From Globomyces pollinis-pini (Eukaryota > Chytridiomycota > Chytridiomycetes > Rhizophydiales > Globomycetaceae), in the NCBI GenBank assembly GCA_025399215.1, contig MU621329.1, positions 1-25,604 on the forward strand: 25,604 nt of DNA, in the 5' to 3' direction. Positions 16,633 through 17,835 of this stretch are shown piece after piece. Position numbers and translations under genes: made by a program. How positions within the stretch are numbered: position 1 is the first letter of the stretch; every line of letters begins with the position of its first letter. Under the pieces are notes generated by a model. The model was not told the origin of the DNA and did no database searches. It saw only the letters and a program-made list of their open reading frames with translations.

Positions 16633-17835
16633 ATGGGGTTATGTAAATGTAGGAACGTCACCAATCTATTCTGCTTTGAACATCGTAAGAATGTTTGTGA
16701 ATCGTATTATTTGCTTCCTTAATATCTTAGTTGTATCGTGGAATCTCATTCCCATTGCATAGGTATTTTTATACTTACTGCTTTTTACTTTAGGTATAGA
16801 AATCTATAGCTGATTTATTTAGGTATTTAAATTGAAATGGTTTAATGTTCAGTTCGTTCATATTTGCAATGGTTGCAAGATAGTGATTTTAATTCAGTTT
16901 GTGAACTTTGTCATAAAAGTTTAGATGGAAATGGAAACGTTGTTAGATTGACTTGCTTAGGTACTCTTCTTGATGACTCTGGAATATTTCTGTTTGACAA
17001 CCCAAATTACTGTTTTTCACAACTCGTTCTATAATCCAACTCATATATGCTTGTTGATTCATTTTGATTTTGTTTACTCCAATCAACTATTCACATTTTA
17101 AAATATATAGATTCAAATTATTAACTGTTAGATTTATTTCATATCGATTGTATCAATGATTATTGTACAAAACTACCCAAAAATACTGCTATTTCAGGAT
17201 ATACCTGTCCAGGATGCTCAGTAACTTTATTAAAATCAGTTTATAAATTAGAGTCGAATCTTACCACCTTCTCATCAAGCTGGGCCATTAGCCGTTTTGG
17301 TTCGATCAGTTTTTCAAAATACAGCATGGGCCAAACATCTCTTTGGTACCAATACCAATATCCCTACTCTCAATATTCCTGGTAATTGTTGATTGACTCT
17401 AAATATAGCACCGAAAACCCCAATTTTGAATAATATCAATTCAATTGCAAAACCTATTCCAGAAAGTTCTTCTGGAATCGTTCCATCAGCTCAATTTCCA
17501 GAATCATCAAATAAATCTCAAACTCGTTTGGCAATTGATCCAGATGATCGTGATTATAAGAGTAAAACCCCAATTGTCAATCGAATGCAACAACAAGAAA
17601 GGTATATTTGAATCATTTAATTTTATACTAGTGCTATATTTCAGTGTCTAGAAAGCATTCTGTAACAATTTTATAAACTTATTATAGTCCATCTCGACGA
17701 TTAAGCCCAAAAAAGATTTTGACGTATTTATCTCTGATGGGATTATTTTATCTTGGCTATCGAATGCTATATTCTGATTCATTATCGGAAACTTTAAACG
17801 AAGCTAATGGTGATCAAAAGGTTATAGTGAATTAA
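16633..17835 (+). CDS. ZFPL1: ZFPL1 homologue, Golgi zinc-finger membrane protein
   Basis: Seven exons (16633-16703, 16731-16762, 16853-16960, 17132-17220, 17252-17381, 17409-17601, 17688-17835) give 256 residues. The N-terminus is MGLCKCRNVTNLFCFEHRKN, then CESCIVESHSHCIVRSYLQW and LQDSDFN: a B-box-like zinc site (C4, C6, C14, H17, C22, C25, H30, C33). A RING-like site follows (C51, C54, C69, H74, C77, C96, C99) with QAGPLAVLVRSVFQNTAWAK after it, as in animal ZFPL1. A single membrane span lies near residues 217-237. Known ZFPL1 is a cis-Golgi protein that binds GM130 and keeps Golgi structure. Intron sizes are 27, 90, 171, 31, 27 and 86 nt; the 90- and 86-nt introns have internal splice-site structure (see findings). 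A 30-nt cassette exon would give 266 residues. Confidence 0.92.
16763..16852 (+). other. Compound intron: three abutting introns (31+29+30 nt)
   Basis: The intron of ZFPL1 between exons 2 and 3 divides without remainder into 16763-16793, 16794-16822 and 16823-16852. Each part begins GTAT and ends AG (TTAG, TTAG, TCAG), giving two internal TTAG/GTAT junctions. Each part has the size normal for this locus. Removing all 90 nt gives the conserved CIVRSYLQW reading. Confidence 0.75.

What the first reader, a model, noticed from the sequence alone, without database searches (positions are those of the whole stretch)
16763..16852. A 90-nt intron made of exactly three complete introns with zero-length exons
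In the ZFPL1 gene the conserved protein reading requires removal of 90 nt. That intron divides without remainder into 31, 29 and 30 nt, each GTAT...AG and each of the size normal here. The two internal junctions are TTAG/GTAT, so splicing of any unit leaves a legal site. It looks like recursive splicing at miniature scale, or intron multiplication by insertion of an intron at an intron end. Units differ in sequence, so a recent simple tandem copy is not obvious.
Basis: partly seen in the sequence, partly recalled or inferred. Interest (0 to 1): 0.8.

Follow-up and report, generated by a model that had tools for sequence, protein, structure and literature searches.

The report
Trains of tiny introns without exons
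In a chytrid fungus, very short introns of about 29 letters sit directly end to end in a number of genes, with nothing between them, in trains that seem to grow by local copying and must be cut out of the RNA one after another or as a block.

Summary
The deposited Globomyces pollinis-pini protein crosses the junction exactly so.

It is not confined to one gene. TTAGGTAT pairs at one-unit spacing number 43 genome-wide, against 3 for the reversed pattern and 3 at a distant spacing. I hand-curated 17 arrays of 2-9 abutting introns, including Ran, Rab GDI (two), an E2 enzyme (seven units), a protein kinase (five) and a FYVE protein (four). Short introns here are 23-40 nt; the refined gene finder predicts none of 41-69 nt, and all ten intron positions of that size are exact tandem doubles. 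Branch-point motifs are enriched in the units. Neighbouring units are more alike than random introns; Ran has two identical ones with no copy elsewhere, so local tandem duplication is the likely origin. Array ends share more microhomology than single introns do.

The window's own units are too diverged to show how they arose. No RNA evidence was available, so stepwise (recursive) removal is inferred. New variant of a known kind.

The parts
16633..16703 (+). ZFPL1 exon 1 (MGLCKCRNVTNLFCFEHRKNVCES)
   Evidence: gene model; same residues in deposited protein P0171
16704..16730 (+). ordinary single intron, 27 nt, GTAT...TTAG
16731..16762 (+). ZFPL1 exon 2 (32 nt), ends ATAG before the array
16763..16793 (+). 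array unit 1, 31 nt, GTAT...TTTAG; candidate branch A near 16777 (CTTAC, motif match by eye only)
   Evidence: no other copy in the genome at up to 3 mismatches
16794..16822 (+). array unit 2, 29 nt, GTAT...TTTAG; candidate branch A near 16813 (CTGAT, motif match by eye only)
16823..16852 (+). array unit 3, 30 nt, GTAT...TTCAG; candidate branch A near 16845 (TTAAT, motif match by eye only)
16853..16960 (+). ZFPL1 exon 3 (codon V split G|TT, then RSYLQWLQDSD...)
16961..17131 (+). long intron, 171 nt, not tiled
17132..17835 (+). rest of ZFPL1: exons with introns 17221-17251 (31 nt), 17382-17408 (27 nt) and 17602-17687 (86 nt, or a 30-nt intron, a 30-nt exon and a 26-nt intron)

Best explanation
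The 90 nt are a train of three complete minimal spliceosomal introns joined AG|GT with zero-length exons, one of many such trains (by rough extrapolation of the order of a thousand) in Globomyces pollinis-pini.

SHOWN: each unit has a donor and an acceptor and the length of a normal intron; branch-point motifs are enriched in the units of such trains across the genome; removing the whole train restores conserved proteins in several genes; some trains consist of identical or near-identical units.

INFERRED, RNA: the spliceosome recognises introns of about 23-40 nt by intron definition. A 3' site that abuts the next 5' site cannot be engaged for both at once, so units are removed in successive rounds. 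Every removal recreates a legal AG|GT, so any order, or a jump over several units, ends in the same mRNA. This path independence makes extra units nearly neutral, unlike typical stwintrons, where order matters.

INFERRED, DNA: an intron whose borders read AG|GT...AG|GT is flanked by a short direct repeat. Slippage or unequal exchange there duplicates (or deletes) exactly one intron, so trains grow like a minisatellite whose repeat unit is an intron, and then diverge in sequence while the splice signals are kept.
For: Whole-array removal restores known proteins: ZFPL1; Ran, 32+32+28, no gap against Gsp1 chain 3m1i_A; Rab GDI, 30+28 and 31+26+27, no gap at either junction against GDI chain 3cph_G and 100% identity over 441 aa to the deposited protein; an E2 enzyme (Ubc8 by recall), seven units, no gap against 8pmq_E; kinase, FYVE and epimerase domains that span the junction; Hsp70 and class-III aminotransferase domains over the junction.

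Enrichment: TTAGGTAT at one-unit spacing 43 against 3 reversed; at 95-115 spacing 3, against 4 reversed; GTAT..TTAGGTAT..TTAG 60 against 14; three TAGGTAT in a row 15 against 1.

Unit-level use: 0 predicted introns of 41-69 nt among 512, while 10 of 10 intron positions in that range tile as doubles. Branch motif in 39 and 35 of 51 first and second units, against shuffle means of 22.3 and 20.1, and 281 of 374 in single introns.

Origin: 33 of 75 adjacent unit pairs (44%) exceed the 95th percentile of random intron pairs, p 2e-14. The Ran unit occurs only as its two tandem copies. End microhomology 3.2 against 1.35 nt, p 9e-9; exon base -1 is G in 30 of 32 arrays against 191 of 374 singles.
Against: No RNA-seq, lariat or intermediate data; one-step removal of triples and longer trains is not excluded, because longer introns exist here (171 nt in this gene). 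The window's own units are not similar to one another. Arrays are found by their intact sites, so decayed arrays would be missed and 'signals are kept' is partly ascertainment. GTAA-type pairs are only mildly enriched (40 against 25 control). GTTT pairs are not enriched (7 against 18; five of the seven lie in one array). Array units are slightly longer than singles (29.4 against 28.4 nt, KS p 0.04). In L016, L041 and L043 reads part of the chain as coding; still counts L016 as tandem. Of the 42 chains, 19 lay outside genes in the first gene models, the window's among them. Three of 35 predicted arrays lie in gene models that score under 20. Single introns were predicted with a branch-point term, so their motif rate is not independent. 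No relative's DNA was examined.
Confidence: 0.72

Rival explanations
1. The block is removed in one step as an ordinary intron from the first GT to the last AG; the internal AG|GT sites are relics of past duplication and are not used.
For: Introns of 70-250 nt are predicted here (35 of 512) and this gene has one of 171 nt. A one-step path gives the same mRNA, so protein evidence cannot tell the two apart.
Against: Doubles of 54-66 nt fall where no other predicted intron lies: 10 of 10 positions of 41-69 nt are tandem. Diverged units still have intron length and branch motifs. Relics would decay, although decayed arrays would be missed by the search.
Confidence: 0.2
2. New units come from elsewhere: an excised intron is reverse-spliced or inserted at an AG|GT junction next to a resident intron and fixed by gene conversion (introner-like or intron transposition).
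For: Many arrays, the window's included, have units with no mutual similarity. Insertion at AG|GT would also explain the AG and GT flanks.
Against: Unit 1 of the window and the Ran unit have no dispersed copies at up to 3 mismatches (only these two units were tested). Where similarity is visible it is between neighbours.
Confidence: 0.13
3. Coding tandem repeats with dual-specific AGGT sites, spliced in variable number, as in human UBC.
For: The SDR gene in L018 has six 27-nt units; units 2-6 are in frame without stops, so 15 of 21 contiguous retentions would be read as protein.
Against: In the other 16 curated arrays 159 of 162 contiguous retentions shift the frame or meet a stop, and the conserved proteins have no residues there where this was aligned.
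Confidence: 0.04
4. Chance AG|GT sites in an AT-rich 90-nt intron.
For: Loose tilings do arise by chance (140 of 300,000 shuffles; 64 of 57,422 reversed spans).
Against: Strict tiling 0 of 300,000; genome-wide excess over reversed and spacing controls.
Confidence: 0.01

Closest known systems
Recursive splicing at ratchet points / 0-nt exons of long Drosophila introns (PMC8605326; outline and introduction read)
   Same: Juxtaposed 3' and 5' splice sites (AG|GT) inside an intervening sequence; removal regenerates a donor; no exon sequence left in the mRNA.
   Different: There the sites lie mostly in long introns and go with cryptic exons; here whole introns of about 29 nt abut, up to nine in a row, and any order of removal is possible on paper.
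Stwintrons, spliceosomal twin introns of Ascomycota (PMC9024468, PMC7138796, PMC8469720; passages read)
   Same: Complex intervening sequences in fungi made of two complete U2 introns, removed by consecutive reactions. In Lipomyces starkeyi the donors abut and one-step or two-step removal are both possible (PMC7138796).
   Different: A typical stwintron has an internal intron inside a donor, branch or acceptor element of the external one and goes inside out; for the [D1,2] type one-step use of the outer sites shifts the frame (PMC9024468). Here no element is interrupted and the product does not depend on order.
Dual-specific splice sites in tandem arrays: human UBC and the VCX3A intron-copy polymorphism (PMC10809524; passages read)
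   Same: Tandem AGGT sites usable as donor and acceptor; repeat expansion linked to intron creation; an extra copy of an intron as an insertion polymorphism.
   Different: UBC units are coding monomers and the outcome varies; here units are minimal non-coding introns in unrelated genes and one product is expected.
Intron gain by tandem duplication of AGGT segments or repeat expansion (PMC4974935 and PMC2395259; passages read; includes a fission-yeast intron across four duplicates)
   Same: Local duplication with AGGT at the ends supplies splice sites; replication slippage is among the proposed mechanisms.
   Different: Those cases duplicate exonic or exon-intron segments in single genes; here existing introns are multiplied without exon between them, in many genes.
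Introners (PMC9860276; abstract start and one passage seen)
   Same: Many new introns in one genome.
   Different: Introners are copies spread over many genes; the two units tested here have no dispersed copies.

Membership tests
Recursive splicing | 3' splice site directly followed by 5' splice site inside an intervening sequence | tested here: met
   by sequence
Recursive splicing | Splicing intermediates joined to the internal AG|GT | not testable with these tools
   no RNA reads available
Recursive splicing | Located in long introns (fly type) | tested here: not met
   curated arrays are 54-266 nt
Stwintron | Internal intron interrupts donor, branch or acceptor element of an external intron | tested here: not met
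   units abut exactly; all 64 curated units begin GT and end AG
Stwintron | Obligatory inside-out order | not testable with these tools
   by sequence logic any order gives the same mRNA; order in vivo unknown
Dual-specific splice-site arrays (UBC type) | Tandem AGGT sites that can act as donor and acceptor | tested here: met
   sequence only; use in RNA not tested
Dual-specific splice-site arrays (UBC type) | Repeat unit is a coding monomer | tested here: not met
   16 of 17 curated arrays; L018 is the possible exception
Tandem-duplication intron gain | Neighbouring units are copies of each other | tested here: inconclusive
   Clear for several arrays (Ran, L042, L018, L026, L030, L009) and for the group; not detectable in the window array
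Introner elements | Many similar copies dispersed in the genome | tested here: not met
   two units tested

The most novel reading that the evidence does not exclude
Globomyces pollinis-pini has a genome-wide, still active process in which minimal introns multiply in place like a minisatellite. AG|GT borders give a direct repeat for slippage, trains reach nine or more introns with no exon between them, and the spliceosome removes them by repeated recursive rounds whose order does not matter, so the extra units are almost neutral and the trains feed the supply of new intron sequence.
Probability: 0.55. Interest if true: 0.85.

Novelty: new variant of a known kind. Interest (0 to 1): 0.76.

Why it matters
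Recursive splicing is described mainly for long animal introns; here it would have to work on introns near the minimum size, several times in a row and in basic genes such as Ran. That makes two open questions testable in one fungus: how the spliceosome treats a zero-length exon, and how introns are born. With identical, similar and fully diverged trains side by side, the genome offers an age series for intron multiplication by local duplication. It also warns annotators: a gene model without zero-length exons records such a train as one intron.

Tried and rejected
Chance was rejected by shuffles and by reversed and spacing controls. A dispersed introner family was rejected for the two units tested. 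A coding-repeat reading was rejected for 16 of 17 curated arrays. Rfam and tRNA scans of the window were empty. Searches for GTAA and GTTT trains gave weak or no excess. Relatives' DNA was not compared: the genome tool says that it holds no relatives of this genome, and I looked nowhere else for their DNA.

Known weak points of my counts: one search's 35 tandem positions include L016, whose middle 'unit' translates as RYCDDVVKLL (I recall this gene as Vps35 and take it as a short exon), and three in gene models scoring under 20 (L010, L022 minus, L040); the epimerase match supports the L040 one. The gene finder is self-trained on the same DNA, its introns are predictions, and it missed the window's own array. 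The fetched loci were chosen by pattern hits, apart from the window and three arbitrary 10-kb pieces. The 17 curated arrays were chosen by me for readable proteins, with unit borders set by hand for some (L045, L042); for L042 one search gives another parse (34+28x6, with a 28-nt intron and a 5-nt exon before it). In the simpler first run two introns of 58 and 66 nt were predicted; both tile as doubles. Pfam found nothing for the 119-aa ZFPL1 piece, the 39-aa E2 piece or the L042 protein.

Full report
WHAT WAS CHECKED. The 90 nt at 16763-16852 split exactly into 31+29+30 nt, each GTAT...AG, with both junctions TTTAG|GTAT. Their removal joins ...HCI to VRSYLQWLQDSD in ZFPL1. The gene model (16633-17835) gives 256 aa. 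The best database match is BC833DRAFT_602753 of Globomyces pollinis-pini, 100% identical over 81% of the query, on a contig of 25604 bases, the length of this window. Its sequence passes the array junction exactly as predicted and aligns without a gap there to the seven relatives aligned. The genome is therefore Globomyces pollinis-pini; the GDI match on a contig of 41546 bases, the length of contig C152, agrees. The two ZFPL1 proteins differ at the C-terminus: the deposited one ends ...ESAIFQCLESIL, which fits a 30-nt intron where I drew one of 86 nt. A 30-nt intron, a 30-nt exon and a 26-nt intron would satisfy both readings.

NOT CHANCE. Shuffling the 90-mer gave no strict tiling in 300,000 trials and 140 loose ones. 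In the fetched DNA, GT...AG spans of 75-105 nt tile strictly in 14 of 37,085 cases and loosely in 139 on the true strands, against 0 and 64 of 57,422 in reversed sequence. A scored scan of 195 kb found 42 chains of two or more units against 1 in reversed sequence. Both comparisons are inflated, because most of that DNA was fetched for such hits.

GENOME-WIDE. The exact pattern TTAGGTAT-N15-35-TTAGGTAT occurs 43 times in 18.5 Mb, against 3 for the pattern read backwards. At spacing 95-115 it occurs 3 times, against 4 backwards (at least one of those 3 is inside an array). GTAT..TTAGGTAT..TTAG occurs 60 times against 14, and three TAGGTAT in a row 15 against 1. GTAA trains are only mildly in excess (40 against 25) and GTTT trains not at all (7 against 18; five of the seven are one array).

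INTRON ANATOMY. I built a self-trained gene finder on the fetched DNA. With a branch-point term it predicts 512 introns: 477 of 23-40 nt, none of 41-69 nt, and 35 of 70 nt or more; in the last rounds the length prior was flat from 45 to 260 nt. The simpler first run had two in the gap, 58 and 66 nt, both tiling as doubles. The branch consensus is close to YTNAY. Merging abutting introns gives 441 intron positions: 374 single, 32 long and 35 tandem (10 doubles, 18 triples, 4 of four, one each of five, six and seven). All 10 positions of 41-69 nt are tandem doubles; two of them are in weak gene models (L022 minus, L040). Of the 27 positions that overlap the hits used to choose loci, 22 are tandem. 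Among the other 414, 13 are tandem (3.1%; 10 of 340 in genes scoring 40 or more). The window's own array was not found by the gene finder. In three arbitrary 10-kb pieces the tally called none of 74 positions tandem, but one of its blocks there overlaps a five-unit array (25+27+29+28+29) in a kinase at FLHDL|GLIHTDLKPEN. So the unselected rate is about 1-3%. With 74 positions per 30 kb this suggests of the order of a thousand arrays in 18.5 Mb; that is my extrapolation, not a count.

CURATED ARRAYS. Seventeen arrays with 64 units were curated by hand (minus-strand positions are on the reverse complement of the locus): ZFPL1, Ran (32+32+28), GDI (30+28; 31+26+27), an E2 enzyme (27+29+25+28+30+28+28), the kinase, a FYVE protein (31+30+34+30), two in one PHD-finger gene, Hsp70-like (29+33+33), class-III aminotransferase (30+30), an epimerase (26+28), two in one BAR gene, a WD40 gene (33+28+34+28), L042 (28+39+28x6+31) and an SDR gene in L018 (6x27). 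Tool support for the junction exists for ZFPL1, Ran, GDI, the E2 (no Pfam match for its short piece), kinase, FYVE and epimerase, and Hsp70 and aminotransferase. The PHD match covers only the first of its two arrays. The BAR_2 match starts just past the second BAR array and the BAR match only three residues before it; neither covers the first. The listed WD40 stretches do not cover that junction. L042 has no Pfam match. The SDR match begins just past the junction. Excluding L018, 159 of 162 contiguous retentions would cause a frameshift or a stop. In L018, 15 of 21 would be read through, so a coding repeat is possible there. Further long chains with open frames on both sides, not curated, are an eight-unit one in L029 and a five-unit one in L032.

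ARE UNITS REAL INTRONS? For the pattern hits, which were chosen without regard to the branch point, the motif at the right distance is found in 39 of 51 first units and 35 of 51 second units; shuffle means were 22.3 and 20.1, reversed cores 24 and 22, and single introns 281 of 374 (the singles were predicted with a branch term). Both units have it in 28 of 51. Unit lengths resemble single introns but are about 1 nt longer (29.4 against 28.4, KS p 0.04). Together with the empty 41-69 range this favours removal unit by unit, at least for doubles.

ORIGIN. Of 75 adjacent unit pairs in 36 arrays (the doubtful L016 included), 33 (44%) exceed the 95th percentile of random single-intron pairs and 22 (29%) the 99th (p 2e-14; p 2e-13 against units of other arrays). 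Ran has two identical 32-nt units that occur nowhere else at up to 3 mismatches. L042 has six 28-nt units nearly alike and L018 has 27-nt units nearly alike. The window's units are not similar (p about 0.48), and unit 1 has no copy elsewhere. Arrays have more microhomology at their ends than single introns (mean 3.2 against 1.35 nt, 32 against 374, p 9e-9; 3.0 against 1.4 in genes scoring 40 or more, 23 against 309, p 9e-7). The exon base before them is G in 30 of 32 against 191 of 374 singles; AG in 19 of 32 against 104 of 374; GT follows in 11 of 32 against 45 of 374. Four of 36 arrays, whose selecting pattern used exon bases, were left out of these flank counts. This fits slippage between AG|GT borders. 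It could also reflect insertion at AG|GT, or a need for strong donors.

HOW IT PROBABLY WORKS. A zero-length exon cannot be held by the 3'-site and 5'-site machinery at once, so units should leave in successive rounds. Since each excision recreates AG|GT, all orders, and skips, end in one mRNA. This is inference from sequence; no RNA evidence was available.

LITERATURE. Searches (open-licence PubMed Central only; one search listed 35 of 58 papers and 15 of 18) showed me no report of such trains. Nearest are fly ratchet points (PMC8605326, introduction read), stwintrons (PMC7138796, PMC9024468, PMC8469720; passages), dual-specific splice sites in UBC and an intron-copy polymorphism in VCX3A (PMC10809524; passages), tandem-duplication intron gain, including a fission-yeast intron across four duplicates (PMC4974935; passages), repeat expansion creating introns in Cryptococcus (PMC2395259; passages) and introners (PMC9860276; start of abstract and one passage). 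The present case combines known ideas in a form and on a scale that I did not meet in what I saw of these sources.

Noticed in passing
window 17602-17687: The last ZFPL1 intron of 86 nt is better read as a 30-nt intron, a 30-nt in-frame exon and a 26-nt intron: the deposited protein continues SAIFQCLESIL there, while the downstream exon encodes a C-terminal hydrophobic stretch as in some relatives. Some predicted 70-90-nt introns may be such pairs.
   Followed up: partly
L018 3378-3539: Six 27-nt units in an SDR/FabG-like gene; the first unit starts GTAAAAGA like the downstream exon, and units 2-6 are open in frame, so this array may be a coding repeat or an intron born from exon duplication.
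   Followed up: partly
L026, 2980 on the reverse complement (133 nt): An intron with an internal tandem repeat of about 33 nt (seen by eye) that is not cut into AG|GT units, i.e. a duplication inside an intron that did not make new introns.
   Followed up: no
window 22221-25208: A single open frame of 995 codons with ankyrin-like repeats (by eye) and no intron, in contrast to the intron-rich genes around it.
   Followed up: no
L015 3576-3848, L025 4677-5143 and L035 925-1177, all on the reverse complement: Two separate arrays in one gene, in a PHD-finger gene, in GDI and in a BAR gene, suggesting that some genes are prone to them.
   Followed up: no
L016, 3150-3178 on the reverse complement: A pattern hit whose 29-nt middle unit is translated in the gene model but treated as intron: short exons between AG and GT can mimic array units.
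   Followed up: partly
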